From: Pandoraea capi
GTDB lineage: Bacteria > Pseudomonadota > Gammaproteobacteria > Burkholderiales > Burkholderiaceae
Direction of reading: 5' to 3'
DNA: 64,000 bases
Assembly: GCF_902459735.1 (NCBI RefSeq)
Contig: NZ_CABPRV010000007.1
Span: 233,749 to 297,748 of the forward strand
The notes below the pieces were generated by a model. The model did no database searches, was not told the origin of the DNA, and saw nothing but the letters and a program-made list of their open reading frames with translations. Position 1 is the stretch's first letter; every line of letters starts with the position of its first letter. Shown in pieces: positions 210 to 21,696 of the stretch. Position numbers and translations under genes: made by a program.

Positions 210-1010
210 ATGAGTACGGTGCGATTTCTGATCAGCCGCCACGACGTCAAACTCAGTGTGAACGGTCTAGTGCATACGTTGCCTGCGGGCAGCATGACCG
301 CGACCAGTTCTGACGCGACGATGGACGCCCCAGGGCCCGTGGTGTCTCACGATTTTCATGCCTGCGATTTGCAGGCGCTGTATCCGGACGTCGTCGATCT
401 GCTCGATCGTCGTCCGCTGGGTGTCTTCCACCGTCAGGCGGCCCGTACGCTGGTTCTCGAACCCACGATGGTGGATGTGGCCATGACATTGCAGAACGTC
501 GATCGCATGGCGATGCTGCGTTTCTTCTACGTCTACTGCCTGTGTCGCGACCAGCGCTACTTCTCGGCGATGTTGCGCCAGACGATTGCGGGCAGTCATT
601 CGCTGTTCGATTTCGTCGAGGCGAATTTTCACCGGCCGTGGCCCGTCGGGCGGCTGGCCGAAGAGTTCGGCATGCCGCTGCGCAAGTTTCGCTATCTCTT
701 TCAGCAGACGTACGGCATGCCCGCCAAGCAGTGGCTGCTGGAGCGGCGGTTGCGGTTGGCGCGTGACTTGCTGCTGTCCACCCGTCACAAGGTGCTGGAC
801 ATCGCGCTCGAATGTGGCTTTACCAATCACGCTCACTTCACCGACACGTTTCGCAAGCGCTTCGATTGCGCACCGACGGAGATTCGTCTGGGCACGCCGC
901 CGCAGCGTGGCGGGCGACGCGTTGCGATGCCGCGTGCGGATGCCTACGCCGCCATGCGCGCCGATCTCGTGGCCGGGCATGGCGCGATCACCGACGCGGG
1001 GGTGGTATGA
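210..1010 (+). CDS. AraC-family transcriptional activator of the T3SS locus
   Basis: This 266-aa protein has a divergent N-terminal half and a C-terminal AraC double helix-turn-helix (about residues 145-245). The signature of the second helix pair is visible as DIALECGFTNHAHFTDTFRK, followed by PTEIR. The ATG at 210 is preceded by a purine-rich GAGGAGGAG site; longer in-frame starts lack one. The stop overlaps the needle gene by 4 nt (ATGA), so regulator and needle are probably cotranscribed. Position and architecture match the ExsA/InvF/MxiE type of T3SS activator, which often works with a secretion-sensing chaperone. The ligand or partner is unknown. The N-terminal part shows no recognisable cupin motif. 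Confidence 0.85.
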   Translation: MSTVRFLISRHDVKLSVNGLVHTLPAGSMTATSSDATMDAPGPVVSHDFHACDLQALYPDVVDLLDRRPLGVFHRQAARTLVLEPTMVDVAMTLQNVDRMAMLRFFYVYCLCRDQRYFSAMLRQTIAGSHSLFDFVEANFHRPWPVGRLAEEFGMPLRKFRYLFQQTYGMPAKQWLLERRLRLARDLLLSTRHKVLDIALECGFTNHAHFTDTFRKRFDCAPTEIRLGTPPQRGGRRVAMPRADAYAAMRADLVAGHGAITDAGVV

Positions 1011-1225
1011 ACGTCGAGGAGATTCATCGCAGCATGGGCGAGGGCGTGCGCCGCATGTCGGACGAAGCGACGCAGGCCGTGCGCACGAAGAAGACGAACG
1101 ATGCCAGGGACATGCTCGACGTGCAGTTCAAGTTGCAGCAGTTCTCGACGGCCATCGGTTTGCACAGCGCCACCATCAAGCTCATCAAGGATACGGTGAT
1201 GGGCATCATCGCCAAGATCGCGTGA
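1007..1225 (+). CDS. sctF: T3SS needle filament subunit SctF (SsaG/EscF type)
   Basis: This 72-aa protein is the size of a needle subunit. Its C-terminal half (FKLQQFSTAIGLHSATIKL, then IKD and GIIAKIA) closely follows the SsaG/EscF pattern in which QFxLQQYS and IKDxxxGIIAKI are conserved. Subunits polymerise helically into the extracellular needle through which effectors pass. The N-terminus is charged, as in other needle helices. It starts inside the stop of the AraC gene and ends inside the start of the next gene, so it is translationally coupled on both sides. The SsaG-like sequence is the best single clue that this is an SPI-2/LEE-class system. Confidence 0.92.
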   Translation: MNVEEIHRSMGEGVRRMSDEATQAVRTKKTNDARDMLDVQFKLQQFSTAIGLHSATIKLIKDTVMGIIAKIA

Positions 1226-1758
1226 TGGCCATGTCCTCGACGCCGTCGAATCCAGCCGTTTCGTCGACCGCCAGCCGGCCGGAAGCGCCCCCGACGCCGT
1301 GGCTCGTCAACGCGGTTCGCCAGCAAATCGTGGAACTGGCGCTTGCGGGGGCGCAGCACGGTATGGAAGCGGAAGCGAGAGCGATTCTCGCCGCACTTCC
1401 GTCACTGGTGCCGCAGGACGACGCGCGTCAGTGTCTTCACGCAGCGCTTCTCATTGCACTTGGCGACACGGTGGCGGCGCGGTCGTGTCTTCAGGATCTC
1501 GTCGCACGTGGGCAGGCTGACGTTCCGACGGCCAATGTGCTGCGCCAGTGGCTTGACGCGACCGACGCGGGGCGGTCGCCGCGTCACGTGGTGGCATCTG
1601 CTGCGTCGCCCGTGTCGCCCGCCCCGTGGAACCCATCGCACCCTTCGAACGTGTCAGTCCCGGCGCTCCCGTCGCCTTCATCGGACCTATCGTCCGTATC
1701 ACCCGCACCGCCCGCATCGTCTTCCTCTTCACCGTCCTCCCTCATTCCTTCGTCATGA
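1225..1758 (+). CDS. SctG/SsaH-position needle chaperone with long Ser/Pro tail
   Basis: This 177-aa product starts in an overlap with the sctF stop (TGATG) and occupies the position of ssaH in SPI-2. Residues 18-85 are Ala/Leu-rich helices (ALAGAQHGMEAEARAIL, then LHAALLIALGDTVAARSCL), which resemble the TPR-like YscG/SsaH/EscG chaperones. Those proteins, with a YscE/SsaE partner, hold needle monomers soluble. The last 65 residues are almost only Ser, Pro, Ala and Val and look disordered. Known family members lack such a tail. The call rests on position and helical character more than on identity. Confidence 0.6.
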   Translation: MAMSSTPSNPAVSSTASRPEAPPTPWLVNAVRQQIVELALAGAQHGMEAEARAILAALPSLVPQDDARQCLHAALLIALGDTVAARSCLQDLVARGQADVPTANVLRQWLDATDAGRSPRHVVASAASPVSPAPWNPSHPSNVSVPALPSPSSDLSSVSPAPPASSSSSPSSLIPSS

Positions 1759-2111
1759 CGACTCCGCTCATTTCATCGACAGTCACGCACGCCGTGGCTG
1801 CGGCCCTCCCGTCCAAGATTCCGGCGCCTGTATGGAGTGCGAATGGCGCGGATGCCGCTCGCTTCGAGCAGGCATTGGCGAGTGCGCCATCGCTGCCCGA
1901 ACATCACTTGGTCAGCGCTGCAAGCAAGCTGGCGGGCAATACCGAGCATCTCGTGCAACGGGTCGCGCTGGATGAGCGGACGCTCGACGATCCCACGCAC
2001 ATGGTTGCCGCCCAGCGCGAAATTACCGAGCGAGTGCTGGCCCTTGAGTTTGTCGCCAAGACGGCCGGTGCCGTGACACAAGGGGTGAACAAGCTGGTCC
2101 ATATGCAATGA
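1755..2111 (+). CDS. sctI: T3SS inner rod protein SctI
   Basis: This 118-aa protein begins MTTPLISS and starts in an ATGA overlap with the preceding gene. Its C-terminus (LEFVAKTAGAVTQGVNKLVHMQ, in two blocks) has the amphipathic helix typical of SsaI/PrgJ/YscI rod proteins, which end in a helix assembling beneath the needle. Location between needle and SctJ genes is the ssaI position. Rod subunits are early substrates that connect the export gate to the needle and take part in substrate switching. Confidence 0.85.
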   Translation: MTTPLISSTVTHAVAAALPSKIPAPVWSANGADAARFEQALASAPSLPEHHLVSAASKLAGNTEHLVQRVALDERTLDDPTHMVAAQREITERVLALEFVAKTAGAVTQGVNKLVHMQ

Positions 2112-2989
2112 CGCGCCGGGGCCGTATTGGAAATTGCATCGTGAACTGCCTTCGGGGACGCACGCGTGCCCGGGGCTGGCTCGTCTGCGTATTCCTGCTC
2201 GCACTCACGGGATGCAAGGTCGAATTGCATCGCGCCTTAAGCGAGACCGAAGCGAATCAGATGCTTGCGCTGCTGCTGGTCTCGGGGCTTCAGGCGGACA
2301 AGCGTGCCGACACCGCTGGCATCACCGTTCGCATCGAGCGGGGCGATTTCGTCCGTGGCGTGGAGGTGCTTCGTCAGCATGGACTGCCGCGTCAGACGCG
2401 TGCGTCGGTCGAAGACGTCTTCCCGCCGGGGCAACTCGTTAGTTCGCCCGTACAGGAACAGGCGAAACTCATCTTCCTCAAGGAGCAGCGGCTCGAACGC
2501 ATGCTGGCGGCGCTGGATGGTGTGATGGTCGCGGAGGTGTCGATTGCGCAGGTGCCCACGGACTCTGCTGGCCGCGCGACATTGCCTCCCGGAGTCGCTG
2601 TCTTCGTCAAATACAGTCCCGAAATCAATATGTCGCAGCGCATGACAGACATACGTAGCCTGGTGCACGACAGTGTGCCGGGCGTGTCACCCGAACGCAT
2701 CAGCATCGTGTTGCAGCCTGCCGATTACCGGCTGCCGCGTGCGGCCATCGAAGCGGTCGACAGGGAATCGACGGATGGCGCGACCGTGGGCGTGATCACG
2801 AAAGCCAGGACGGGAGCCGGAACGGAAGCGATTCCGCAGGCAACGAATGCCCGGCGGTGGTATCCGGTCGCGGCATGGGCGGTGTTGGCCGTGGCCGTGG
2901 TTGCGCTCGGTACGGCTGCGGTGGTGGGCTGGCGCCGTCGGGAGGTCTGGGTGAGCTACCTTCGGCGACGCAGCGTGAGGGCATCGTGA
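2108..2989 (+). CDS. sctJ: T3SS inner-membrane ring lipoprotein SctJ
   Basis: This 293-aa protein is a member of the YscJ/PrgK/SsaJ/EscJ family. It has a signal sequence with a lipobox (LTGCK near residue 36), so Cys should be lipidated. Two ring-building domains follow, with the conserved stretch LSETEANQML, and a transmembrane segment lies near residues 252-273. SctJ forms a 24-subunit periplasmic ring with SctD in known systems. The start overlaps the sctI stop (ATGA), and the stop overlaps the GTG start of the next gene. Length is slightly above average because of an N-terminal basic extension before the hydrophobic core. Confidence 0.95.
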   Translation: MTRRGRIGNCIVNCLRGRTRARGWLVCVFLLALTGCKVELHRALSETEANQMLALLLVSGLQADKRADTAGITVRIERGDFVRGVEVLRQHGLPRQTRASVEDVFPPGQLVSSPVQEQAKLIFLKEQRLERMLAALDGVMVAEVSIAQVPTDSAGRATLPPGVAVFVKYSPEINMSQRMTDIRSLVHDSVPGVSPERISIVLQPADYRLPRAAIEAVDRESTDGATVGVITKARTGAGTEAIPQATNARRWYPVAAWAVLAVAVVALGTAAVVGWRRREVWVSYLRRRSVRAS

Positions 2990-3915
2990 CCGGGGGCGCA
3001 CTACGCGCACTCATGGCGCGACTGGTCTGGCAGCCCGGCGCGCAGATGGACGACGGGTGGTGGGATGTGCTGGGACTCTCGTCGTGGAAAGTGCTTTATC
3101 GGCGCTATCCCGCTTGTCGACGGCAGGTCGACCGCCTCATCGTTGCGCGGCGCGGGTGGCCTGTGGCCCATCACGCGGTGCGCTGTGTGTCCCCGGAAGG
3201 CGATGCCACAAATGCCATGCTGCCCATCTTGCGCCTCGTGCCGAACCTGCGTCGTGTCGCACTCGCCTATGGGTTGCGTCGGCTAGGGTGTCCGGACTAT
3301 TTGCTGCTGGGCACCTATCGCCGTGCGTTGTCGCCCTGGCTCGACGCATGGCAATGCGATCGCCTGTTGTTGATGCGACGCGACTGGCCGTCGAGTCCCG
3401 AGTTTTCACCTGAGACGATTGCCACGGCAGCACTGGCTGTCACCGGTGCTTGTCTCGATGCCGTGTCCATCGTCACGATGTCGTCCGGCGATGAGGCGTT
3501 CACGGAGCAAGTGACGCATGCTGCATACCCGACACAGACGGCGGAAGCACCGCGGGCGGCATCAATGATGCTGGCAGCGGGGGCGGCGCAGACGACACAA
3601 GCGACACAAGCGACACAAGCGACACAAGCGACGCAGCCGACACAGCCGACACAGCCGACACAGCCGACACAGCCGACACAAGCGGCGCAGACCACGTGGG
3701 TGACATGCCCGGTGCGCAAGACATCAGCGGTGCCAGCAGCATCAGCGGCATCAGCGGCATCAACCGCATCTGCGGCACACATGGCTGCCCGAATTTTGTT
3801 ACCACCGCCGGGCGTCGTATCGGCGTCGACGTCCGAAGCAGTTGCGGTAGACGACATCTGGCCGCGTCTTGCGGCGCTGGAGAGGATGCTATGTATGTCA
3901 TCGACTACGCATTGA
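2986..3915 (+). CDS. sctK: SctK-type sorting platform protein with low-complexity repeat
   Basis: This 309-aa product lies between sctJ and sctL, where the SctK-like gene STM1410 sits in SPI-2. The N-terminal 150 residues (WWDVLGLSSWKVLYRRYP, PDYLLLGTYRRALSPWL) fit the poorly conserved OrgA/MxiK/YscK adaptors, which bridge the cytoplasmic pod (SctQ-SctL-SctN) to the inner ring. A GTG start at 2986 makes a GTGA overlap with sctJ; an ATG at 3013 is the alternative. The second half is unusual: eleven tandem 9-bp units coding Thr-Gln-Ala/Pro, then an Ala/Ser-rich stretch. The family call is by position and a few motifs. Confidence 0.7.
   Translation: MTGGALRALMARLVWQPGAQMDDGWWDVLGLSSWKVLYRRYPACRRQVDRLIVARRGWPVAHHAVRCVSPEGDATNAMLPILRLVPNLRRVALAYGLRRLGCPDYLLLGTYRRALSPWLDAWQCDRLLLMRRDWPSSPEFSPETIATAALAVTGACLDAVSIVTMSSGDEAFTEQVTHAAYPTQTAEAPRAASMMLAAGAAQTTQATQATQATQATQPTQPTQPTQPTQPTQAAQTTWVTCPVRKTSAVPAASAASAASTASAAHMAARILLPPPGVVSASTSEAVAVDDIWPRLAALERMLCMSSTTH
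3592..3690 (+). repeat. Eleven 9-bp tandem repeats inside sctK
   Basis: Units of the type RCGACACAR (with ACACAAGCG and ACACAGCCG variants) repeat eleven times without interruption. They are in frame and encode Thr-Gln-Ala and Thr-Gln-Pro tripeptides. The period is a multiple of three, so copy-number change would alter linker length without a frameshift. Confidence 0.95.
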
Positions 3916-4580
3916 CCCCCATCGAAACCATTGACGGTCCCGCGCCTGCGGGACTTGTGGTTTCCGGCGAGACACTGACGCAACTGCGCGAGCAGGCGAG
4001 TCAACGTGTTCGCTGGATGGAGGAGGCGCGCGCGGAGCGTGATGCCGCGCGGGCATCGCTGGATCAGGCACGGCGCGACATTGATGAGCAACGCCTTGCG
4101 TGGCAGGAAGCGGCAAAGGCGCAGGCGCAAGCTCAGGCGGACACCCTGGCCGAAGCGGCGCGGCAAGCGGCCGTGGCACAGGCGGTGGAGTGGCTCGTGG
4201 ATGAGGCAACGATGGAGCGCGAGATCGTGCGTTCGCTGGAGCGTCGCGTTGCGGACGCGGTGACCGTCGCAGTGTCGAACTTTGTCGATAAGCTCGATGC
4301 CGGGGAACGCTTCGCGCACCGCGTTGGCCAGATGTTACCCGGGCTGGTGCGCGAAGGGGCATTGGTCATGCGTGTGCCTCCGGCGCATCACAGCGCCATC
4401 GCCAATGCACTGCGAGACGCCGATATCGTGCTGCCTTGCTCCCCGGATGCGACATTGACCGGCCATCAGGCGCGTATCGAGAGCGAGTGGGTCACCGTCT
4501 GTCTCGATCTTGATGCGGATCTCGAAGCGGTCATCGACCGTTTGCGTGTCGGCCCGAGTCTGGAGGTGGCATATGGTTGA
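3891..4580 (+). CDS. sctL: T3SS ATPase stator SctL
   Basis: This 229-aa protein has the layout of SctL/SsaK/YscL and flagellar FliH. A long, charged, Ala/Gln-rich coiled coil (about residues 35-105, rich in EEARAERDAARAS-type heptads) precedes a compact C-terminal domain that binds the ATPase. It links SctN to SctQ and SctK in the cytoplasmic sorting platform. The ATG at 3891 follows GGAGAGGAT and lies 25 nt inside the end of sctK. The gene ends 8 nt inside the sctW start, so translation is coupled. Confidence 0.9.
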   Translation: MYVIDYALTPIETIDGPAPAGLVVSGETLTQLREQASQRVRWMEEARAERDAARASLDQARRDIDEQRLAWQEAAKAQAQAQADTLAEAARQAAVAQAVEWLVDEATMEREIVRSLERRVADAVTVAVSNFVDKLDAGERFAHRVGQMLPGLVREGALVMRVPPAHHSAIANALRDADIVLPCSPDATLTGHQARIESEWVTVCLDLDADLEAVIDRLRVGPSLEVAYG

Positions 4581-5715
4581 GCGGCTGACGCCGTCCATCG
4601 ATTCGCGCGCGACGACACCTCGGGAGAATCCGGCGCTCGAACGTATTCTGGCCGACGAGTGGCAAGCGCTCGAAGCCGACGGTCAGTCGTCGAGAGCGGC
4701 ATTCACCGATGTGCCCGGCCATGTCGCCCTGATCGAAGCCACCATCGCACAGAACGAGGAAGCGGCATTCGCGGAGTCGCAGGAGAACCTTAGCTTTGCG
4801 CTGGGCGTGCGCTTTCGCAGGACCGGCGAGCGCGACGTGCGCGATGACAGGCAGCGTGCGCGGGCGCTGTTCGAGCAACAGATGCACCGGTTCGCGCGCG
4901 TGAACGGTGCGCAGTTCGAGCGGCTGCGCAGCCAACTGCGAGACTTGCCGTTCGTTCCCGATCCTCAGCAACTCATTCGACTGGCGCAGATGTCTGCCGG
5001 CCATGCCGCGCTGATCGTCGCCGCTTGGCTGGCCGACGGCGGACTGGACGCAGGAACGCGGGCGCGGTTACGGCGAACGCTCGACGAACTGACGACGTCG
5101 GAAACGTGGGGTATCGAGGCGTTTGCGGCGCTTGAATGTGGCGATGGGAACGCACCGTCAATGGTGCTGATGCAGCAACTCAAGTCGCTCTTTCGTCAGT
5201 CACAGGGGGCGCAGAAAACGCTCACACAATGGTTCGACGCGTGTCGGCGTCTGCCGCAACGTCATGCCAGATTGCGCGCGTTAATGCAGGCGCTTGGGTT
5301 GGAGTTGGGCGCGCAACCGATGGAGGGTGGCGTCGACACGCAACGTTTGTCCGCAGTCGTCGACGATTTGCGCCGGGTGGTGTTGTTTCTCACGCTGGAG
5401 TCTATCTGCGAGCAATCGGCCCATGCGGTACGCAACGCCGGAGTTCGTGCGTTCGAGACGGACACCATGATTTCGGAAACGTTGATGCTGCTGGATCAGC
5501 CGTGGGTCGGCGCCGATTGGCTGGCGCAACGTGCGGCGTATCTCGGGATCGTGACGGTTGACGCGCGGTACGCACTTGCACACGCCCTCACGCAACTGAT
5601 CAAGTCCGCGCATGAGGGGTGTTTTCGCGATGAGACGCAACGAGAAACGCTGGACGAGGCGCTCGACGCCTGGCGCACCGGCATCGCGCAGGAAGGTGAT
5701 GCAATGGACGATTGA
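4573..5715 (+). CDS. sctW: T3SS gatekeeper SctW (SsaL/SepL/YopN-TyeA family)
   Basis: This 380-aa protein belongs to the HrpJ/YopN/InvE/SepL family. The N-terminal segment (about 1-60) is polar and probably carries the chaperone-binding region. The helical HrpJ core spans roughly 60-250, and a TyeA-like C-terminal domain includes DTMISETLMLLDQPWVGADW. Gatekeepers hold back effectors until translocators are secreted and contact is sensed. In SPI-2 the partners are SsaM and SpiC, and candidates for both are encoded nearby at 11451 and 10302. It is the last gene of the first plus-strand operon. Confidence 0.9.
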   Translation: MVERLTPSIDSRATTPRENPALERILADEWQALEADGQSSRAAFTDVPGHVALIEATIAQNEEAAFAESQENLSFALGVRFRRTGERDVRDDRQRARALFEQQMHRFARVNGAQFERLRSQLRDLPFVPDPQQLIRLAQMSAGHAALIVAAWLADGGLDAGTRARLRRTLDELTTSETWGIEAFAALECGDGNAPSMVLMQQLKSLFRQSQGAQKTLTQWFDACRRLPQRHARLRALMQALGLELGAQPMEGGVDTQRLSAVVDDLRRVVLFLTLESICEQSAHAVRNAGVRAFETDTMISETLMLLDQPWVGADWLAQRAAYLGIVTVDARYALAHALTQLIKSAHEGCFRDETQRETLDEALDAWRTGIAQEGDAMDD

Positions 5716-5842: not shown

Positions 5843-6256
5843 TCAGGCGCGCAAGTGCTCCCGACAGAGCTTGATACGGTCGTAGAAGTCGGTGAGCGCC
5901 TGTGCAAAAGGTTCGGCCTCGGCGGCGGCATCTTCCTTGACTTGTGCGTGAAGGATCAAGCGATTATCGCGTTCACGCAATTGGACATGTCCGGTGACCG
6001 CCCACTCTGCGGGCTCGATCAAAAACTGAAGCAACCGTTCGCTGTTGGCTCTGTGGAGTCGTGCAGCTTCGTCGGTCGCCACTACCGCGTGAATGCTGCA
6101 CACCTGATTGTCCAGCGTCTCCACGATGATGCTCGGTGAGGCGTTGAATGTCAGTTCGATGGGCGAGTGATTGTCGACGGCGTCGATCTTGCTGGGGTCG
6201 CAGCCGATCAGTTTCAGGGCTTCGACGAGGGTTTGCGCTAGATCGTAACTGGGCAT
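5843..6256 (-). CDS. Probable class I T3SS chaperone (CesT/SpaK-like)
   Basis: This 137-aa acidic protein has the size and alternating helix/strand pattern of CesT-fold secretion chaperones. It starts with the helix DLAQTLVEALKLIG and has a central strand pair (IELTFNASPSIIVETL and VCSIHAVVA). It ends with a helix containing FAQALTDFYDRIKL. Such proteins bind the N-termini of effectors or translocators as dimers. It is convergent with sctW and lies downstream of the ssaE-like gene, about where sseA sits in SPI-2, but it does not resemble SseA. The substrate is unknown and no partner gene is adjacent. Confidence 0.6.
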   Translation of the reverse strand: MPSYDLAQTLVEALKLIGCDPSKIDAVDNHSPIELTFNASPSIIVETLDNQVCSIHAVVATDEAARLHRANSERLLQFLIEPAEWAVTGHVQLRERDNRLILHAQVKEDAAAEAEPFAQALTDFYDRIKLCREHLRA

Positions 6257-6494: not shown

Positions 6495-6734
6495 TTACGG
6501 CGCTTTTCCATACGATGTGCTGTAGCGGCGCGCGATGCTTTCAAGAATCGCCCCTGCTGCAATGACGGCTTGTTTCAATGCGTCGGCCTGCGCATGTTGC
6601 GCAGGGGGAAGCGGTGCGCCAAGCACGATTTCCAGCGCCTTGATGGCCGCGTCGAGTTGTGCGCCGACGTCGCGCGATACGGTGCTGGGTGAGGCGGCAA
6701 GGGCGTCCTCAAGCCGGGTCAGATGCATCGTCAT
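6495..6734 (-). CDS. ssaE: SsaE/EscE-type needle co-chaperone
   Basis: This 79-aa protein begins MTMHLTRLEDAL, close to the LTRLEDLL opening of Salmonella SsaE. It ends with a helix (AVIAAGAILESIARRYS) aligning with the C-terminal helix of that family. YscE/SsaE-type proteins form a heterotrimer with the SctG-type chaperone and the needle subunit. The gene overlaps the end of sctD by 26 nt, and the order secretin-SctD-SsaE matches SPI-2. An alternative ATG lies two codons downstream. Confidence 0.75.
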   Translation of the reverse strand: MTMHLTRLEDALAASPSTVSRDVGAQLDAAIKALEIVLGAPLPPAQHAQADALKQAVIAAGAILESIARRYSTSYGKAP

Positions 6735-9777: not shown

Positions 9778-10302
9778 TCAACCGCGTCGCAATGCGTGAA
9801 GGCGCCGGGCGGAGCCCGCTGCGCCGCTGGCGATGCCGATACCGTTCGAGGCGGGCGTTGCGGGCGCGTCGCTCGACCTGCCTCGCGCTTGCACGTCCTG
9901 TGACGACAGCATCTCGCAGGCGAGCAGTTGACGACGAAGCTGCGCTTCCACCTGCGCGGCCGGGATGTCGGTGTCGAATCGATGAATCCACCAGACGGTC
10001 TCGTTCGCGATGCACAAGCTGTCATCGCGCAACTCAACCTGTCCGGCAATCACGAGCGAGATGCGTGTGAGCCACCGCAAGCGCGACGCCTCTTGTGGGG
10101 CATCGGTTGCTGTGGCCGCGAGCAGCGGTTGCGATGACGACGAATACCGGCTGGAAAGACTCACCGCAGTTGCCACGCAGTAGCCACCTGCGGCCGGGCA
10201 TGTCCAGCCAGGGCTGCCGTCGAGGTCGAGCAGGGTGCGCGCACCTTGTACGTCGCATGGGGCAATCCAGTCGAGAGCGGCAAGCGCAAATGGCAAACGC
10301 AT
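9778..10302 (-). CDS. SpiC/SsaB-position protein, candidate gatekeeper partner
   Basis: This 174-aa product is encoded directly upstream of the secretin gene, exactly where ssaB (spiC) precedes ssaC in SPI-2. The C-terminal half (LCIANETVWWIHRFDTDI then a helix VEAQLRRQLLACEMLS) resembles the strand-helix end of SpiC and CesT-like gatekeeper chaperones. Overall identity is too low for a firm call. The last 40 residues are Ala/Ser/Gly/Arg-rich. The ATG at 10302 is chosen over a GTG at 10326; neither has a strong ribosome binding site. Confidence 0.5.
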   Translation of the reverse strand: MRLPFALAALDWIAPCDVQGARTLLDLDGSPGWTCPAAGGYCVATAVSLSSRYSSSSQPLLAATATDAPQEASRLRWLTRISLVIAGQVELRDDSLCIANETVWWIHRFDTDIPAAQVEAQLRRQLLACEMLSSQDVQARGRSSDAPATPASNGIGIASGAAGSARRLHALRRG

Positions 10303-11221: not shown

Positions 11222-11450
11222 TTCGCGTAGGCCGAGCGAAAGGCGGAGGTCGGGCGGAGGTCGAACATGCCTTCACCGTGGGCATCGGGCGAATTTCAGG
11301 TCTGCGCCGGATGGCGGACGCCGAGGCGAATGGGAGACCATCATCGCTTCTGTTTTCCAAGGACTCGTCGCACTTCGCGTATCGCAGAGGGGCATGTCTT
11401 GTGATGCGCTTCTGTCGCGCTTGCGACGAGTTCCCGACGCCTGACCAACG

Positions 11451-15736: not shown

Positions 15737-16192
15737 ATGAACACCATCCGCCGTAGTGGCCTTTCGCTCGATGCTTTCGTCAGTCAGGCCGACAGGTCGG
15801 CTTCAGGCCTGCCGCGCCGCAGAGACACGACGACTGGCCGTTTCGGGCAGTGCGAGGCGCGCGACGAGCGCGCCTTCACGCTGACGGGCGAACTGGCAGC
15901 ACACGTGACCGGACCGGCCGACGTGCTTCGGTGGCTACGGGTATGGCATGCGAGACAGGATGCCTGTTGGGATGGCGCGAGTGTCCTGCGAGTCATCGTG
16001 CACGGCGGTGCGCTCAATGCGTTGGTCGTCGAAGCACGGCGAGGAAGGCAGGGCATCACCGTGAGCCTGCTGTGTATTGAGCTTGCGATGTACCGCCGTT
16101 TGCTGGCGCATCGGGGGGCATTGTCCAGAACGTTGACATCCCGTCTCGCGTTGCCGGTCACGATCGAAGTCGAGGCTCGCTATGTGCCCTGA
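15737..16192 (+). CDS. sctP: SctP/SsaP-position needle-length regulator, short form
   Basis: This 151-aa protein lies between sctO and sctQ, the ssaP position, and has a strong AGGAGGA ribosome binding site. The C-terminal 90 residues (VLRVIVHGGALNALVVEARR, GITVSLLCIELAMYRRLL) resemble the globular T3S4 substrate-switch domain of SctP/FliK proteins. The N-terminal part is only about 55 residues, so there is little room for the long ruler helix seen in YscP. It overlaps sctQ by 11 nt. Confidence 0.7.
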   Translation: MNTIRRSGLSLDAFVSQADRSASGLPRRRDTTTGRFGQCEARDERAFTLTGELAAHVTGPADVLRWLRVWHARQDACWDGASVLRVIVHGGALNALVVEARRGRQGITVSLLCIELAMYRRLLAHRGALSRTLTSRLALPVTIEVEARYVP

Positions 16193-17342
16193 GAGCGATG
16201 TTTTGCCGCAAATGGATGGTGGATCGGCAGGCGTTGCTCTATCGCTCGACGATGTACTGGTGGGCCAGGGTTGTCTGACGTTTGCCGAAGGTGATATGGA
16301 CGTGTGCGTCGGCTGGTTGCGTGGGGGGGGCGAAGGACTGGTGGTAACGGCGCATGTTGACGAAGGCGTCGTCGGGCAGGTGCGCTTCTGGTGCGATGCG
16401 CAGCAGTGGGCGGACTGGATCGCGGCCAGTCTGCCGATGCCGTCATGGGAGGCGTTACCGCACGAGTGGCGTGCTAGCGCGGCGTCGCTCACGCTGGCAA
16501 CGGAGAGTACCGGCGACGTGCCGTCGGATTCTCTGCCGTCGTCCACTCCGCTCGACGCGTCATCGCCTGGGGATGAGCCTGAGTTGCATTGCACATCGCA
16601 GTCCGCTTCATCTTCTGTCTCATGCGCCATTTCGTGGCCCGATGCGGTGGCGATCGCACCTGAACGCGTCGAGACCCTCTGGCGCATGGGCATGGTGCTT
16701 GGACGTAACGGGCGGCAGTTGGCACTGCACTATCTCGACGGGGCCACGGCATGGTTGCTAACGCGCTGTGAGCGCGCCACGCCAGCGCACCGGCCGCTCG
16801 ACCCGTGCGGCTTTCCCGAACGGCATTGCGTGATGGCAGCAGGGTGGGCAGCGTTGCCCGCATCGTTGTGCGATGGACTGCTTGACGGCGGGGCGGTGTT
16901 GCTCGACGTTGCCGCCGACGTGACTGCCGGCGAGTATTGGCTGATCGACGGCGACGACGCCATCGCCATGCGTGACGGACAACCTGCCGGGCGGCATGTC
17001 GTTTCCCTTGATCGGGCGACCGACGGGGTTCGCGACGGGGGCGCGCTGGAATGCCCTCGACTCCTTGCGGTCATCGCGCAAAGGCAGATTCCCGTCCCGT
17101 GGCTGACGGCATGGCGATGCGGATATGAAACGGCACCACCGCCCACGACGCCGAGGGCGCTGACGCTCAACGGTATTGCCCTCTGGCGCGATGGCGCCCC
17201 CTGGAAAAGTGGTCGTCTGCTGCGTTTCGGAGACGGGCGCCTCGCCGTGCAGATCGAACCCGCGAATTTGGTGACGACGCCCAGCGCGCCCGACGCCATT
17301 TCGGGTCGTGACCCGATGGGCGTGGATTGCGCGACGTCCTAA
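16182..17342 (+). CDS. sctQ: T3SS cytoplasmic platform protein SctQ
   Basis: This 386-aa protein is at the sctQ position. Two SPOA-type regions are suggested by short strand-rich segments around residues 220-290 (LIDGDDAIAMRDGQPAG) and 300-375 (ALTLNGIALWRDGAPW, GDGRLAVQIEP). SctQ forms the cytoplasmic pods that sort substrates. In related systems a short C-terminal product is also made from an internal start. An in-frame ATG at 16968 is a weak candidate here, without a clear ribosome binding site. A run of eight G (16323-16330) lies within codons 48-50. Confidence 0.8.
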   Translation: MCPESDVLPQMDGGSAGVALSLDDVLVGQGCLTFAEGDMDVCVGWLRGGGEGLVVTAHVDEGVVGQVRFWCDAQQWADWIAASLPMPSWEALPHEWRASAASLTLATESTGDVPSDSLPSSTPLDASSPGDEPELHCTSQSASSSVSCAISWPDAVAIAPERVETLWRMGMVLGRNGRQLALHYLDGATAWLLTRCERATPAHRPLDPCGFPERHCVMAAGWAALPASLCDGLLDGGAVLLDVAADVTAGEYWLIDGDDAIAMRDGQPAGRHVVSLDRATDGVRDGGALECPRLLAVIAQRQIPVPWLTAWRCGYETAPPPTTPRALTLNGIALWRDGAPWKSGRLLRFGDGRLAVQIEPANLVTTPSAPDAISGRDPMGVDCATS

Positions 17343-17430
17343 CATTTCCCGAGACATTCTGCGTGTCGTCGCGCGCTATCACACGTTATCCCACGTCATC
17401 GCACGTTACCGGGCGTCCATTGGAGTTTGT

Positions 17431-18081
17431 ATGTCCCTGCTCGACCACCCGGTCCAGCTCATCGTATTGCTCACGCTGCTCTCGATCATGCCGTTGCTGG
17501 TGGTCCTGGGGACTGCGTTTCTGAAGCTGGCCGTCGTGTTCGCGCTGCTGCGCAATGCGTTGGGCACTCAGCAGATTCCACCCAATATCGCAATCTACGG
17601 CCTGTCCCTCGTGCTCACCTGTTTCATCATGGCGCCGGTCGCGTTCGATATCGAGGAGAACCTCGGCGCGCGTCCGGTGTCGCTATCTTCCAGAAGTTTC
17701 GTGGCCGACGTCGACGCCAGCGTACTCAGTCCGTACCGCAAGTTTCTTACCCGTCACACCGATCCCCGGCAACGCGACTTCTTCACGGGCCTCGGCAGCG
17801 AGACATGGCCCGAGGCGCATCGTGACCGGCTTGGCGCAGACTCCCTCCTCGTGCTGATGCCGGCGTTCGCGCTGAGTCAACTCGCCGAAGCCTTCAAGAT
17901 CGGTCTTCTGCTGTACTTGCCGTTCGTCGTGATCGATCTCGTCATTTCAAACATCCTGCTGGCGATGGGGATGATGATGGTCTCGCCCATGACCATCGCC
18001 TTGCCGTTCAAGCTGCTCATTTTCGTGATGATGAACGGCTGGGAGCAACTCGTGCGGCAGTTGATGCTGTCGTACGCATGA
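17431..18081 (+). CDS. sctR: T3SS export apparatus protein SctR
   Basis: This 216-aa FliP/SctR-family protein has four hydrophobic segments. The conserved blocks are LLTLLSIMPLLVVLGTAFLK, FALLRNALGTQQIPPN, and the C-terminal VIDLVISNILLAMGMMMVSP. It forms the pentameric core of the export gate with SctS and SctT. The ATG at 17431 follows TTGGAG. The 88-bp gap after sctQ has no visible gene. Confidence 0.97.
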   Translation: MSLLDHPVQLIVLLTLLSIMPLLVVLGTAFLKLAVVFALLRNALGTQQIPPNIAIYGLSLVLTCFIMAPVAFDIEENLGARPVSLSSRSFVADVDASVLSPYRKFLTRHTDPRQRDFFTGLGSETWPEAHRDRLGADSLLVLMPAFALSQLAEAFKIGLLLYLPFVVIDLVISNILLAMGMMMVSPMTIALPFKLLIFVMMNGWEQLVRQLMLSYA

Positions 18082-18100: not shown

Positions 18101-18367
18101 ATGAGTGAAGCCATCGTCGTCAATCTCACGAGCGAAATGCTCTGGCTCACGCTGCTGATGTCGCTGCCAACCGTCGTCGTCGCCTCGGCCGTGGGGGTGC
18201 TTGTCTCACTCGTGCAGGCGCTCACGCAGGTGCAGGATCAGACCGTGCAGTTCCTCATCAAGCTGATCGCCGTGTCGGTCACGCTGGCCGCGACCTACGC
18301 ATGGATGGGGCACGTTCTGCTTAACTACGCTGGCAATGCGTTCGCGCAGATCAGCCGGATGGGGTGA
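18101..18367 (+). CDS. sctS: T3SS export apparatus protein SctS
   Basis: This 88-aa FliQ/SctS protein has two transmembrane hairpin helices and the conserved stretch VGVLVSLVQALTQVQDQT. Four copies wrap the SctR-SctT complex in known systems. It starts 20 nt after sctR, and its stop overlaps the GTG proposed for sctT. Confidence 0.97.
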   Translation: MSEAIVVNLTSEMLWLTLLMSLPTVVVASAVGVLVSLVQALTQVQDQTVQFLIKLIAVSVTLAATYAWMGHVLLNYAGNAFAQISRMG

Positions 18368-19191
18368 AGGCCATGCTGACGACCTCCGGTACTTTGCTCG
18401 CTCCGCTGTGGACCGATCTGTTCGGCTGGCTGCTGGCGTGGGGCGTGGCGATGCTGCGTCCACTCGGCATTGCGATGCTGCTGCCGGTGCTCTCCGTCGG
18501 CATGCTCGGCGCGGGTCTGTTGCGTAACGCACTCGTGCTGGCGCTGGCACTGCCTGTCGTCTCACTTGTGCACGCCACGTCGGAAATGCCGACGCAGTGG
18601 GGGGCGTGGGCATCGCTCATCTTGCGCGAGCTTTGCATCGGCGGGCTGCTCGGGTTCGTCGCGACGCTACCGTTCTGGGCCGTCGACATGACAGGGTACG
18701 TGATCGATACGATGCGTGGCGCCTCGATGGCCAGCGTGCTGAACCCGCTCATGGGCGCGCAATCGTCGATCTTCGGTATCGCCCTCACCCAGATGCTCTG
18801 TGTGCTGTTCTTCGTGACGCCGGCGGCACACGCGGTACTCACGGCGCTCTACGACTCTTACATTGTCCTGCCGGTCGGCAGTGGGTGGCGTTGGGAGGCG
18901 GCGTCGCAGGCGTGGTTGCTGTCGCTGTGGCAGGCGATGCAGGTCATGTGCGTCGCTGTCGCGTTGCCTGCGATGGTCGTGATGGTGCTCGTCGACATGT
19001 CGATGGGCTTCGTGAATCGCGCCGCGCAGCAACTCAACGTGTTCTTCCTCGCCATGCCGGTCAAGAGCGCCATGGCGTTGCTCGTGACGGTGGCGAGTCT
19101 GCCGTTTGCCATCGCCGTGCCGCTTGCGCACTGGTATCGCCTGCCCGAAGTGTTTCGGGCGTGGTCTGCGATGGTGCTACCAGCGTCGTGA
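18364..19191 (+). CDS. sctT: T3SS export apparatus protein SctT
   Basis: This 275-aa FliR/SctT-family protein has about six membrane segments. Family landmarks include RELCIGGLLGF, a loop near GASMASVLNPL, and VDMSMGFVNRAAQQLNVFFL with the PVKS motif. The single SctT subunit caps the SctR5-SctS4 channel entrance. A GTG at 18364 gives a GTGA overlap with sctS; an ATG at 18373 is the alternative. Confidence 0.95.
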   Translation: MKAMLTTSGTLLAPLWTDLFGWLLAWGVAMLRPLGIAMLLPVLSVGMLGAGLLRNALVLALALPVVSLVHATSEMPTQWGAWASLILRELCIGGLLGFVATLPFWAVDMTGYVIDTMRGASMASVLNPLMGAQSSIFGIALTQMLCVLFFVTPAAHAVLTALYDSYIVLPVGSGWRWEAASQAWLLSLWQAMQVMCVAVALPAMVVMVLVDMSMGFVNRAAQQLNVFFLAMPVKSAMALLVTVASLPFAIAVPLAHWYRLPEVFRAWSAMVLPAS

Positions 19192-19198
19192 GGCACGC

Positions 19199-20299
19199 AT
19201 GAGCGAAAAGAACCTGCCCCCGACGCCCAAGAAGATCGACGACGCGCGCAAGAAGGGACGCGTTGCCAAGAGCGCCGATCTTGCCGTCTGCATGCAACTC
19301 GGCGCGGTGCTCGCCTGGCTGATGTTCGAGGGACCGGCGCTTCACGATGCGCTGCAAGCGCTTGTCTCGCGCATGCTGCTTGTACTGCGTGACCCCGTCG
19401 ACGAAGCCGTGCAGGGCATGCTCGGCCCGTCGTTATTGATTTTCGTCCGCTTCACCGGTGGTCTCGCGATTCTGCTGATCGTGACCACATGGCTGGCGAT
19501 GGTGCTGCAAGTCGGCGCGCTGGTCGCGCCCGAAGCGATCCGTCCCAAGTACGAGCGCATTGATCCCGTGGCCAAGGCGAAGCAGTTGTTTTCGATGCAG
19601 TCGCTTTTCGAATTCGGCAAGTCGTTGATCAAGGTCGCCGTGCTGGGCGTGGTGTTTTTCTATCTGATTCGGCATTACACGCCATCGCTCGCCGTGCTGC
19701 CGCAATGTGGCCCGGCATGCGGGCTGGCACTCACGGTCAGGCTGTTGTTCTGGTTGATGGCGGTGCTGGTGGTGGCGTACGTGGTGTTCGGCGGGCTCGA
19801 CTTTGCGTATCAGAAGTATCAGCTCCGCAAGCAGCTCATGATGTCTCACGATGAAATCAAGCGGGAGTCGAAGGAAGTCGAGGGCAATCGCGAGATCAAG
19901 AACAAGCGGCGCGATATCCACAGGGAGACGATCGAGAGCGGCAGTCTGTCGAGCAACGTCAAACGATCGACGGCGGTGGTGCGCAATCCGACCCGGCTTG
20001 CGATCTGCCTGCGCTATGTTCCCGGGGAGACGGCGGTGCCGCTGGTCATCGAGAAGGGGCGCAGCGAACGCGCTCGCACGATTGTGCGTATCGCCGAGCG
20101 TGAAGGGGTGCCGGTGGTCGAGCATGTGCCGGTGGCGCGTCGATTGATGGAAGACGTCGAGATTGATGCCCCGATTCCCCCCGACCTGTTCGATGCCGTC
20201 GCCGCGATATTGCGTCTGGCGCTCGATCTTCCTTACGAGGTGCAGGCAACGTCAGAGACGGACGCCCCTCGGCATCCTGCGCCGGGAGACGTGGCATGA
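19199..20299 (+). CDS. sctU: T3SS switch protein SctU with NPTR instead of NPTH
   Basis: This 366-aa FlhB/SctU-family protein has four transmembrane helices in the first 210 residues, then a cytoplasmic domain. The N-terminus (KNLPPTPKKIDDARKKG) is canonical. The autocleavage site, normally Asn-Pro-Thr-His, reads Asn-Pro-Thr-Arg (STAVVRNPTRLAICLRY); the codons are AAT CCG ACC CGG. Asn and Pro, which carry out the self-cleavage, are kept. Cleavage changes substrate preference from rod/needle to later substrates. The start is 7 nt after sctT, and the stop overlaps the next gene (ATGA). Confidence 0.95.
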   Translation: MSEKNLPPTPKKIDDARKKGRVAKSADLAVCMQLGAVLAWLMFEGPALHDALQALVSRMLLVLRDPVDEAVQGMLGPSLLIFVRFTGGLAILLIVTTWLAMVLQVGALVAPEAIRPKYERIDPVAKAKQLFSMQSLFEFGKSLIKVAVLGVVFFYLIRHYTPSLAVLPQCGPACGLALTVRLLFWLMAVLVVAYVVFGGLDFAYQKYQLRKQLMMSHDEIKRESKEVEGNREIKNKRRDIHRETIESGSLSSNVKRSTAVVRNPTRLAICLRYVPGETAVPLVIEKGRSERARTIVRIAEREGVPVVEHVPVARRLMEDVEIDAPIPPDLFDAVAAILRLALDLPYEVQATSETDAPRHPAPGDVA

Positions 20300-21696
20300 G
20301 CGCCCCGTCGATGCTGTCGTTGCACCGCGTGTGGCGGATCGTCGTCCTCGTCTCGGCAGCGCTGATGTTGAGCGGACTCCCGACGAGAGCCGCGGATCTT
20401 GGGCTGTTGCCCCATCATCCCCGTCTGGCTGACGCGCAGATCGCTGTGCCGGTCGTCAGCGCTTTGGCGCGTGGGGCGAGCGTGGAACTTCGCGCTACCC
20501 AGGGGGGCGAGGCCACCCTCAGTGAGGCGGCCGGCGATTCATCACGTGACGGCAAACGCGCGTTGCCCGATGATCCGCGCGAGGCGGCCAGGCGTCTGGT
20601 GTCATCGTTTCGCGAGCCGGACGTGGAGACGCCGGTGGCTATCGCGTCCCCAAGGTCGTTGCCTGACGGCGAGGTGAATTCGAGGGGGCGTGGTGCCTCG
20701 GATGGGGCTACGGGCGGTCTGATAGACGCACCGGGGAACGTATCCATATCGACGTCGGTCGCCGCGCAGTCCACAACCTTGACGTCCGCCGAAAGTCAGC
20801 CCTCCGCAACGCTCCCCTTCGACACCCTCGTGCGACGCGCTGCGTATGCCAGCTCGGTCGACGCGGCGTTACTGCACGCGATTATCGACACTGAGTCGGG
20901 ATACGACCCGCAGGCGGTGTCCGAGCGCGGCGCCATCGGGCTGATGCAGGTCCTGCCCCGCACCGGCCAGCGCTTCGGGGTGCGGCGTCTTGAGGATCCT
21001 GCCGAGAATGTGAGGGCGGGGGCGTCGTACGTGCGCTGGTTACTCTCGCGATTCGACGGCGACGTTAGCCTCGCGCTTGCGGCCTACAACGCGGGAGAGG
21101 GGGCCGTACTGCGCTATGGGCGTCAGGTGCCGCCGTATCCGGAGACGCAGAAGTATGTCCGCAAGGTCATGGCGGGCTATTCGCGGCTACGTGAGGCGGG
21201 CGTGGCAGAGGGCGCTGTCGTGGCTGGCGTGGCAGGTACGCCGCATGCGCACGGTATGCCCGGTGCCGCCGGAGGGCCTGCCAACACGGCGCGGGCGTAT
21301 GCACCTGCCTCAACGTCGTCCCGATCGCCCCTTGCTACGGCGGTACGTGGTGACGGGGTCGCAGGCATGGCGTCGGCGAAGGACGGGGATGGTATCCGCG
21401 GCACGGCTAACGGCGCCGTCACCAGCGCTGGCAAAAAGGCGGACAACCGCACGGAAAGCGTCAAAACCCCCAGCGCCGCCGACCAGAAGGCCGACCGCGC
21501 GTGGCGTTTGCTACGGGGTTTGGGGGCGTTGATTACACGCAGCCCTTCCGCAGACGCCGCGAGGCCCGCCGGGCATGCCGCCCGGGACCGCGATCAGCCG
21601 GCGGTCGTCATGCCGTCGCGCGTGCGCGAGCGAGTCACCGGCGCCGCGCTGGGGCCCGCCGGGCGGGACGCCCGAGCGTCCGCGCTTCCGGGGTAA
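20296..21696 (+). CDS. T3SS-associated lytic transglycosylase
   Basis: This 466-aa protein has a signal peptide (VVLVSAALMLSGLPTRA) and then a 140-residue spacer. A family 1 SLT domain fills about 180-300, with the catalytic Glu in IDTESGYDPQAVS and the motifs GAIGLMQVLP and LALAAYNAGEGAV. A long Ala/Gly/Arg-rich tail follows and looks disordered. Such enzymes (IagB, EtgA) open the peptidoglycan for the secretion apparatus. Translation is coupled to sctU by ATGA. The stop abuts the stop of the convergent gst gene with no bases between. Confidence 0.9.
   Translation: MSAPSMLSLHRVWRIVVLVSAALMLSGLPTRAADLGLLPHHPRLADAQIAVPVVSALARGASVELRATQGGEATLSEAAGDSSRDGKRALPDDPREAARRLVSSFREPDVETPVAIASPRSLPDGEVNSRGRGASDGATGGLIDAPGNVSISTSVAAQSTTLTSAESQPSATLPFDTLVRRAAYASSVDAALLHAIIDTESGYDPQAVSERGAIGLMQVLPRTGQRFGVRRLEDPAENVRAGASYVRWLLSRFDGDVSLALAAYNAGEGAVLRYGRQVPPYPETQKYVRKVMAGYSRLREAGVAEGAVVAGVAGTPHAHGMPGAAGGPANTARAYAPASTSSRSPLATAVRGDGVAGMASAKDGDGIRGTANGAVTSAGKKADNRTESVKTPSAADQKADRAWRLLRGLGALITRSPSADAARPAGHAARDRDQPAVVMPSRVRERVTGAALGPAGRDARASALPG

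What the first reader, a model, noticed from the sequence alone, without database searches (positions are those of the whole stretch)
210..21696. SPI-2/LEE-class T3SS in a betaproteobacterium, with an inverted cassette
The genes for needle (SsaG-like), SsaH-position, SctI, J, K, L and W lie in one plus-strand block. Then comes a minus-strand ssaB-C-D-E-type cassette and an SsrB-like regulator, then SsaM-like, V, N, O, P, Q, R, S, T, U and a transglycosylase. The gene list is that of SPI-2, but the ssaBCDE part is inverted and moved between ssaL and ssaM. Betaproteobacteria are better known for Hrp and Inv-Mxi-Spa types; Chromobacterium Cpi-2 is one SPI-2-like precedent.
Basis: partly seen in the sequence, partly recalled or inferred. 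Interest (0 to 1): 0.75.

Follow-up and report, generated by a model that had tools for sequence, protein, structure and literature searches.

The report
Split SPI-2-type injection machine in Pandoraea
This is a real, SPI-2-type protein-injection machine that most sampled Pandoraea genomes carry at one fixed chromosomal site, with its inverted gene block, while the genes for the parts that should touch the host sit far away and appear to have been swapped between species.

Summary
The cluster is real: 25 genes, window 210-21696. Family models, PDB matches and SctV, SctN and SctC trees place it in the Ssa-Esc (SPI-2/LEE) family. The inverted cassette is real but not special to this genome: same order in 27 of 27 chromosomal Pandoraea clusters read, at one site (gltB | GST-purB), and in some other Burkholderiaceae and one Pseudomonas. 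Its outermost gene is an InvB/SpaK-type chaperone, not an ssa gene; ssrA and the sse translocon genes are missing from the cluster. An sse-type translocon operon lies unlinked, between the same two genes in 13 of 13 regions read; its SctE occurs in 28 of 32 genomes and in none of the four without the system. SctE and apparatus trees conflict (AU p 4e-4 and 9e-6), so translocon types seem exchanged. SsrB is kept, no SsrA was found. A palindrome with the layout of Salmonella's SsrB site stands before three apparatus operons; its pattern has no other exact match in the 5.85-Mb genome. Ssa-Esc membership of Pandoraea is in print; the split layout, orphan SsrB with kept boxes and fixed InvB-type chaperone I did not find in print.

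The parts
112..128 (+). SsrB-type palindrome (7-4-7 layout) before the araC-sctF operon
   Evidence: relaxed pattern has 3 exact matches in the whole 5.85-Mb genome, all in this cluster; conserved in relatives
210..1010 (+). AraC-family regulator
   Evidence: hits many AraC-family models, all under their cut-offs; 78-99% identical in 26 relatives; dN/dS 0.02-0.03
1007..1225 (+). SctF needle subunit (SsaG-like)
   Evidence: TIGR02105 43.7 bits over cut-off 41.7
1225..1758 (+). SsaH/EscG-family needle co-chaperone with long low-complexity tail
   Evidence: TIGR02498 E 7e-13, under its cut-off
1755..2111 (+). SctI inner rod
   Evidence: TIGR02497 37.3 over 23.45
2108..2989 (+). SctJ inner ring lipoprotein
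   Evidence: TIGR02544 197.2 over 161.95
2986..3915 (+). SctK, LEE/SPI-2 type, with TQA/TQP repeats
   Evidence: PF13327 T3SS_LEE_assoc 89.1 over 25
3891..4580 (+). SctL stator
   Evidence: TIGR02499 E 1e-12, under cut-off
4573..5715 (+). SctW gatekeeper (SsaL-like)
   Evidence: NF011872 E 8e-30, under cut-off; TyeA domain TIGR02511 over cut-off
5843..6256 (-). InvB/SpaK (SPI-1 type) class I chaperone at the end of the inverted cassette
   Evidence: PF03519 49 over 25; NF011864 E 1e-23, under cut-off; closest PDB SpaK 2fm8 and 1ry9; dN/dS 0.00-0.03
6495..6734 (-). SsaE/EscE needle co-chaperone
   Evidence: TIGR02501 E 4e-8 and NF011893 E 1e-7, both under cut-off
6709..8094 (-). SctD inner ring
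   Evidence: TIGR02500 128.9 over 86
8096..9718 (-). SctC secretin, SsaC type
   Evidence: NF011873 581.8 over 524
9778..10302 (-). SsaB/SpiC/SepD-position protein (start uncertain)
   Evidence: position before sctC in relatives; profile comparison with two proteins at the same place in named loci is weak (prob 41)
10393..10409 (-). SsrB-type palindrome in the divergent ssaB/ssrB gap
10562..11221 (+). SsrB-type response regulator without a detected SsrA
   Evidence: NF011896 248.3 over 242; SsrA model NF011874 matches 1 of 32 Pandoraea genomes at E 1e-150, on a plasmid (up to 19 candidates scored a genome)
11296..11312 (+). SsrB-type palindrome before the ssaM-sctV operon
11451..11840 (+). SsaM-position protein
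   Evidence: no family hit; homologous to proteins at the ssaM position of other loci
11837..13906 (+). SctV export gate
   Evidence: TIGR01399 838 over 692; best model is SPI-2/LEE-type NF009363, 939 bits (cut-off 993); closest PDB chain SsaV 7awa 627 bits
13908..15299 (+). SctN ATPase
   Evidence: FliI/YscN model TIGR01026 over cut-off; best model NF005295 593 bits (cut-off 690); closest PDB chain EscN 418 bits
15230..15685 (+). SctO stalk, by position (start may be about 45 bases further in)
   Evidence: no family hit; conserved in relatives, not detected in G028 and beyond the stretch read in G026
15737..16192 (+). SctP needle-length regulator, by position
   Evidence: no family hit; conserved in relatives
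16182..17342 (+). SctQ C-ring protein, by position, divergent
   Evidence: no SpoA hit in Pfam at E 1; matched across loci by relatives
17428..18081 (+). SctR
   Evidence: TIGR01102 281 over 208.6
18101..18367 (+). SctS
   Evidence: TIGR01403 101.5 over 76.5
18364..19191 (+). SctT
   Evidence: TIGR01401 209 over 163
19199..20299 (+). SctU switch protein
   Evidence: NF009364 407.2 over 381
20296..21696 (+). lytic transglycosylase
   Evidence: PF01464 SLT 95.4 over 21.3

Best explanation
The window holds the apparatus half of a working, two-locus SPI-2/LEE-type (Ssa-Esc) type III secretion system that is a standing feature of Pandoraea. The cluster builds needle, rings, export gate and gatekeeper. 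The filament and pore it needs (SseB/EspA, SseC and SseD types, with an SscA-type chaperone) come from an unlinked sse-type operon, on another contig here and about 1.3 Mb away in four single-contig relatives, whose types have been exchanged between species while the apparatus stayed put. Shown: gene content, family, fixed site, the unlinked operon at one site, co-occurrence, tree conflict, purifying selection, palindromes; no ssrA was found. Inferred: that SsrB reads the palindromes before araC-sctF, ssaB/ssrB and ssaM; that another input replaces SsrA; that the first gene of the translocon operon is held back at translation by its leader hairpin; that the InvB-type chaperone loads effectors into this machine; that the target is a eukaryotic cell.
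For: Trees: SctV in the 40-row Ssa-Esc clade with LEE and PSI-2 rows, SH-aLRT 99, quick tree; SctN 91/88; SctC 100/100. Models: SsaC and SsrB over cut-off. Same order in 27 of 27 clusters; empty site in 3 of the 4 genomes without the system. Unlinked operon: EspA and SseC over Pfam cut-offs; best and only NCBIfam models SseB, SseC and SseD, under cut-off. SctE in 28 of 32 genomes, same two neighbours in 13 of 13 regions read in full. 11 of 27 genomes with the apparatus gave no Inv-type second SctV at E 1e-200, yet all 11 keep the operon. Tree conflict. dN/dS at most 0.32 for 25 cluster genes against four relatives, except one transglycosylase pair. Palindromes: 77 in 27 clusters; 3 exact matches in the whole genome; backward controls 0. 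Half-site resembles mCCyTA in the same 7-4-7 layout (PMC2837388, passages).
Against: No expression, secretion or binding data. No effector was identified. The translocon operon has no palindrome of the searched form (0 of 26 loci); none was seen at the linked sse operons of G366, G352, G394 and G108 either. SseB, SseC and SseD model scores are far under the curated cut-offs. In G019 and G028 the operon at the site is highly diverged (SctE 26-28%). G020 has apparently broken SsrB and SsaM frames and G004 lost the middle of the cluster, so the system is dispensable in places. The four genomes without it may be one lineage, so co-occurrence may be few events. G012, one of the 11, has a second InvB-type gene elsewhere, so a more distant Inv-type system there is not excluded. 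SctC's best PDB chains are MxiD and InvG, where EscC is only a fragment; SctV's second-best chain, a non-SPI-2 T3SS protein, is close behind SsaV (590 against 627 bits).
Confidence: 0.72

Rival explanations
1. The cluster is a decaying relic: an apparatus that lost its translocon, its kinase and its effectors and is now carried along.
For: No sse genes and no ssrA at the locus; one relative (G004) has lost the middle of the cluster and one (G020) has apparently broken SsrB and SsaM frames.
Against: In this genome all frames are open; dN/dS 0.00-0.32 for 25 genes in four comparisons (one transglycosylase pair gave 0.89, probably misaligned); two or three palindromes kept in each of 27 clusters; an open sse-type operon elsewhere.
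Confidence: 0.12
2. The apparatus has no translocon of its own and works with that of the Inv-Mxi-Spa system on contig C3; the operon on C11 belongs to something else.
For: This genome has a second, Inv-Mxi-Spa system with SipB- and SipC-type proteins; an InvB-type chaperone sits in the SPI-2-type cluster.
Against: 11 of 27 genomes with the apparatus gave no such second SctV at E 1e-200 and still keep the C11-type operon; the operon's best models are SPI-2 SseB, SseC and SseD, though under cut-off.
Confidence: 0.07
3. The palindromes are read by the AraC regulator rather than by SsrB, and SsrB is vestigial.
For: AraC is the most conserved regulator here (dN/dS 0.02-0.03 against 0.04-0.07 for SsrB); no SsrA was found.
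Against: The sites are near-palindromes of 7-4-7 layout like Salmonella SsrB sites (PMC2837388, passages), stand at ssaB, ssaM and sctR in loci that keep SsrA, and before the Pantoea needle gene, where no AraC match was found in the stretch; SsrB's acceptor Asp is kept in 10 of 10 and its DNA-binding helix in 9 of 10 Pandoraea rows printed, of 27.
Confidence: 0.2
4. On origin: the sse operon was joined to the cluster in an ancestor and moved out, rather than the two loci being gained apart and coming to work together.
For: Relatives with the same inverted cassette have the sse operon divergent from araC (G366, G352, G394, G108, G121).
Against: Translocon types differ strongly between lineages, which also fits separate gain; the SctV tree joins Pandoraea with those relatives (93, not starred), SctC and SctN trees do not.
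Confidence: 0.5

Closest known systems
Salmonella SPI-2 (Ssa) type III secretion system
   Same: Apparatus genes in block order F-H-I-J-K-L-W and M-V-N-O-P-Q-R-S-T-U; B-C-D-E block; SsrB; palindromes before ssaB, ssaM and the needle operon (SPI-2 gene order recalled; palindrome sites from PMC2837388, passages)
   Different: B-C-D-E inverted and placed between W and M; no ssrA; no sse genes in the cluster; AraC, InvB-type chaperone and transglycosylase added
SPI-2-type loci of other Burkholderiaceae (G366, G352, G394, G108, G121) and Pseudomonas farris SWRI79
   Same: Same inverted D-C block (with E and B where detected) between W and SsrB
   Different: Four of the five and P. farris keep SsrA beside SsrB (no match in G121); the five have the sse operon next to araC (not in view for P. 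farris); no InvB-type match by tblastn
Plasmid pPO70-1 / pPF72-1 systems of Pandoraea oxalativorans and P. faecigallinarum
   Same: Ssa-Esc family, same genus, SctV 57-58% identical
   Different: Separate branch beside Paludibacterium; pPO70-1 has B-C-D-E upstream in + direction, keeps SsrA, inverted R-S-T-U
Pantoea stewartii PSI-2 (plasmid p3)
   Same: Ssa-Esc family, SPI-2 gene set
   Different: Keeps SPI-2-like order with ssrAB and the sse operon in place
InvB/Spa15 (SpaK family) chaperones of Inv-Mxi-Spa systems
   Same: Family and PDB match of the gene at 5843-6256
   Different: Sits in an Ssa-Esc cluster, also in 11 genomes where no Inv-type second SctV was found at E 1e-200

Membership tests
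Ssa-Esc (SPI-2/LEE) T3SS family | SctV, SctN and SctC group with Ssa/Esc and not with Hrp, Ysc, Rhizobiales or Inv-Mxi-Spa | tested here: met
   SctV SH-aLRT 99; SctC 100/100; SctN 91/88, with long-branch warnings. Salmonella itself is not a row; E. albertii LEE, Citrobacter, Yersinia, Pantoea and Lonsdalea are. Which rows are Hrp is recalled, not tested.
Ssa-Esc (SPI-2/LEE) T3SS family | SPI-2-type model or structure beats other T3SS types | tested here: met
   SsaC model over cut-off; SctV: NF009363 939 against InvA-type 661; SsaV best PDB chain; SctN: EscN best. The SPI-2-type SctV and SctN models stay under their own cut-offs.
Ssa-Esc (SPI-2/LEE) T3SS family | LEE/SPI-2-type small parts: SctK of PF13327, SsaE, SsaH | tested here: met
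   PF13327 over cut-off; SsaE and SsaH models hit under cut-off
SPI-2 island proper | ssrA next to ssrB and sse translocon operon in the cluster | tested here: not met
   No ssrA match in this genome at E 1e-150; sse operon on another contig
SPI-2 sse translocon operon | SseB/EspA, SscA, SseC, SseD in this order | tested here: met
   C11 operon: EspA PF03433 over cut-off, SscA by tblastn with the Pantoea protein (36%), SseC PF04888 over cut-off, SseD NF052420 under cut-off
SsrB regulon | 7-4-7 palindrome before ssaB, needle and ssaM operons | tested here: met
SsrB regulon | SsrB binds the sites and drives transcription | not testable with these tools
   needs footprinting and reporters
InvB/SpaK chaperone family | PF03519 over cut-off and SpaK as closest solved structure | tested here: met

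The most novel reading that the evidence does not exclude
Pandoraea runs a modular SPI-2-type injector. A fixed apparatus is kept under an orphan SsrB that still reads ancestral SsrB palindromes. The host-contacting translocon is an unlinked cassette at one docking site whose types are exchanged between species, with its own Shine-Dalgarno-hiding leader hairpin. A nearly invariant InvB-type chaperone borrowed from the SPI-1 family serves it, and in genomes whose Inv-Mxi-Spa system lacks an InvB gene of its own it might serve both systems.
Probability: 0.35. Interest if true: 0.7.

Novelty: new variant of a known kind. Interest (0 to 1): 0.5.

Why it matters
It suggests that an SPI-2-type injector can be split in two and stay under selection, and gives a natural series (27 clusters, several translocon types, three empty sites, one internal deletion) in which to ask which part decides the host. 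It also makes testable how an SsrB regulon works without SsrA, and why a SPI-1-type chaperone is among the most constrained proteins of a SPI-2-type locus. A 2023 paper left Pandoraea's Ssa-Esc system without shared translocons (PMC9967039, passages); the unlinked operon is a candidate answer.

Tried and rejected
Rejected: Ysc, Rhizobiales or Inv-Mxi-Spa membership, and Hrp as far as the rows can be labelled; the idea that the inversion is private to this genome; a recent foreign island by base composition (GC 0.61-0.69 in the cluster, 0.60-0.67 from 22 to 58 kb); SsaB identity of the gene at 5843-6256.

A genome-wide pattern search gave only the three boxes in the cluster; the longer form with 2 mismatches allowed gave two more, where its control gave one. 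I did not read the translocon site in the genomes that lack it.


Full report
WHAT IS THERE. The window is the last 64 kb of a 297,748-base contig (G000:C7:233749-297748) of a 5.85-Mb genome. The genus is Pandoraea: genome G018 of the same genus has a 633,357-base contig C2, the length of plasmid pPO70-1 of P. oxalativorans, and the plasmid's sensor-kinase protein matches it at 100%. ORFs, family models and relatives give 25 genes from 210 to 21696. SctF, I, J, K, D, C, V, R, S, T, U, SsrB, the InvB-type chaperone and the transglycosylase pass the curated cut-off of a matching model; SctW does so only with its TyeA domain and SctN only with the broad FliI/YscN model. The SPI-2-type models for SctV and SctN score best but under their own cut-offs. 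AraC, SsaH, SctL and SsaE hit matching models under cut-off. SsaB, SsaM, SctO, SctP and SctQ get no family hit and are named by position and by homologues at the same position elsewhere. SctQ has no detectable SpoA domain in Pfam even at E 1.

FAMILY. SctV lies in a 40-row clade with E. albertii LEE, Citrobacter youngae, Shewanella, Yersinia, Lonsdalea and Pantoea PSI-2, SH-aLRT 99 in a quick tree; Ysc-type rows, Rhizobiales rows, two Pseudomonas rows on a long branch, and this genome's own second system fall outside. SctC gives 100/100 and SctN 91/88 for the same grouping; the tool warned of long branches, LEE among them. The closest solved chains are SsaV for SctV (627 bits, then a non-SPI-2 T3SS protein at 590) and EscN for SctN. 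Labels of reference rows (which are Ysc, Hrp and so on) are mine from organism names and recall; Salmonella itself was not returned by the scan.

THE INVERTED CASSETTE. I read 27 chromosomal clusters (this one and 26 in other Pandoraea genomes). All 27 have F-H-I-J-K-L-W plus, then InvB-(E)-D-C-B minus, then SsrB-M-V-N plus (SsaE and SctO were not detected in the most distant one, G028; the stretches of G024 and G026 end early). MnmA lies upstream in 26 of 27 and GST-PurB downstream in 25 of 27, the rest being cut. Three genomes without the system (G023, G025, G030) have mnmA-gltB-GST-purB joined; G017 is a 1.2-Mb reduced genome in which only purB was matched; G004 keeps J-K-L-W and Q-R-S-T-U in the stretch read but lacks InvB to SctP. 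Outside the genus, 22 of 366 sampled genomes of the family match the SsaC model at E 1e-130 (49 of 398 with the genus). I fetched 20 of their 23 loci (G039, G082 and G105 left out): five (G366, G352, G394, G108, G121) have the same inverted block, two (G208, G068b) fit but are cut or show no SctW, thirteen have other layouts or are split. Pseudomonas farris SWRI79 has it too. In the SctV tree these and Pandoraea form one group (93, not starred), but SctC and SctN trees do not join them, so common descent of the layout is plausible and not shown.

WHAT IS MISSING AND WHERE IT IS. The cluster has no ssrA and no sse gene. The SsrA model matches 1 of 32 Pandoraea genomes at E 1e-150, on a plasmid (up to 19 candidates scored in each genome). 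An SseC-domain search found two loci in this genome: SipB/SipC-type genes beside the second T3SS on C3, which is Inv-Mxi-Spa by model (NF011865, 1027.7 over 800), and an operon on C11. That operon (L016 7174-12233, minus) reads: a 156-aa gene at the SseA position, two EspA/SseB-type genes, an SscA-type chaperone, SctE (SseC), SctB (SseD), and a 170-aa gene. SctE of this type occurs in 28 of 32 genomes: 26 at 56-100% identity, and G019 and G028 at 27-32%. In all 13 regions read in full, the two divergent ones included, it lies between the same SLC13-type and oxoprolinase-type genes (names mine). It is absent from G017, G023, G025 and G030, which also lack the apparatus. In the single-contig genomes G012, G015, G021 and G027 the two loci are 1.26-1.36 Mb apart round the circle (from the places). 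Eleven of the 27 genomes with the apparatus gave no Inv-type second SctV at E 1e-200 and all eleven have the operon, which suggests that it goes with this apparatus; one of them, G012, has a second InvB-type gene elsewhere, so a more distant Inv-type system there is not excluded.

SWAPPING. For 23 genomes I compared a tree of SctV+SctN+SctU+SctT with one of SctE (G004, G024 and G026 left out for missing or cut genes, G019 and G028 for divergence). SctE joins G001, G008, G018, G027 with G016, G020, G021; the apparatus joins the first four with G000, G002, G006, G011, G031. Each data set rejects the other's grouping (AU p 4e-4 and 9e-6; the groups were chosen after seeing the trees, so the p-values are too kind). 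By eye, the loops of the leader hairpin follow the translocon groups. So the translocon operon appears to be exchanged at its site while the apparatus is inherited separately.

REGULATION. Aligning upstream regions of 27 clusters showed one conserved block before araC, in the ssaB/ssrB gap and before ssaM. As TMAGGT-N4-RCCBGAT it has exactly three matches in the 5.85-Mb genome, these three; the backward control has none. A longer form with two mismatches allowed gave two further places, and its control one. In the 27 clusters the relaxed form has 77 matches, two or three per cluster, all at these three places; the backward control has 0 in 1.62 Mb. In related loci 16 of 20 family regions and 7 of 11 named ones examined have at least one, mostly before ssaM, sctR, ssaB or the needle operon; the LEE rows have none. 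Salmonella SsrB is published to use an 18-bp 7-4-7 tail-to-tail palindrome with half-site mCCyTA at ssaB, ssaG, ssaM and ssaR (PMC2837388, passages read). The acceptor Asp of SsrB is present in 10 of 10 Pandoraea rows printed (of 27) and the DNA-binding helix in 9; G020's frame is apparently broken before it. The translocon operon has no such box (0 of 26 loci). Its leader instead folds into a hairpin that holds the GGAGG Shine-Dalgarno in its stem: 25 of 26 genomes, 23 different sequences, G020 not assignable. Four stem positions show changes on both sides (GC/AU or UA/GC), and z-scores run from -2.6 to -7.2 in five sequences (pairs were taken from each sequence's own fold, which favours pairing). 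Rfam has no match at gathering score (one search lists three weak eukaryotic microRNA hits).

CONSTRAINT. Pairwise dN/dS against four relatives: InvB 0.00-0.03, AraC 0.02-0.03, SsrB 0.04-0.07, SctV/N/R/S/U 0.01-0.07, others up to 0.32; PurB 0.02 (the method is a simple count and dS is often near or over 1, so ratios are rough; one transglycosylase pair gave 0.89). The translocon genes against two relatives give 0.10-0.32, apart from one EspA1 comparison at 0.82 with a saturated dS. An InvB/SpaK chaperone occurs in 27 of 32 genomes, each time in this cluster and in 23 of the 27 as the only copy; the Inv-type second system in 16 of 32. In two of those 16 (G013, G021) an InvB-type gene lies next to the second sctV. 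That the constrained AraC and InvB work as a secretion-sensing pair, as MxiE with Spa15 and OspD1 do in Shigella (recalled; one search shows only a listing and abstracts), is a speculation I did not test.

IN PRINT. PMC9967039 (passages) puts P. faecigallinarum in the Ssa-Esc family, with different gene order and without shared Salmonella effectors or translocons. PMC5064223 (passages) lists ssaJ, escN and ssaT on two Pandoraea plasmids. PMC8565462 (passages) reports SPI-2-type systems as sporadic in Burkholderia s.l. PMC10939042 (passages) counts 74 T3SS-related genes in an endofungal P. sputorum. Searches for Pandoraea with type III secretion, T3SS, SPI-2 and translocon found 45, 22, 3 and 2 papers (20, 22, 3 and 2 listed). 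Of these I read passages of four (PMC9967039, PMC5064223, PMC10939042, PMC5632650) and saw no mention there of the unlinked operon, the orphan SsrB or the InvB-type gene. The library holds open-licence papers only.

VERDICT. A true Ssa-Esc system, already placed in that family in print for the genus; the inversion is ordinary in Pandoraea. What is new, as far as I could search, is the split into a fixed apparatus and an exchanged, unlinked translocon, the kept SsrB boxes without a detected SsrA, and the fixed InvB-type chaperone.

Noticed in passing
L016 12234-12310 (G000:C11): Leader of the unlinked translocon operon folds into a hairpin that hides the Shine-Dalgarno GGAGG; found in 25 of 26 genomes with changes on both sides of some pairs.
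   Followed up: partly
L199 (G004:C2:1053000-1064500): G004 keeps sctJ-K-L-W and sctQ-R-S-T-U at the site but the middle, from invB to sctP, is gone; its translocon operon is still present.
   Followed up: partly
L090 (G020:C1): SsrB and SsaM reading frames are apparently broken in G020 and its SctC matches only part of the model; the cluster there may be decaying.
   Followed up: no
L005, L007 (G000:C3:262000-302000): A second T3SS of Inv-Mxi-Spa type with SipB- and SipC-type genes; no InvB gene between its sctV and sctN.
   Followed up: partly
L100 (G008:C5): A further T3SS of a different type in G008 (SctV 43% identical to this one, long branch in the trees).
   Followed up: no
L218 (Pseudomonas farris SWRI79): A Pseudomonas carries an SPI-2-type system with the same inverted cassette and SctV 60% identical to the Pandoraea one.
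   Followed up: partly
L014 (plasmid pPF72-1), about 2447, 9581 and 31958: SsrB-type palindromes also lie 0.3-0.9 kb before other genes of the plasmid, two autotransporters among them, as if these belonged to a regulon.
   Followed up: no
window 58603-64000: GC falls from about 0.63 to 0.52 after a tRNA-Ser (GGA) gene towards the contig end, as at the edge of a genomic island.
   Followed up: no
window about 3590-3710: SctK holds a run of TQA/TQP repeats.
   Followed up: no
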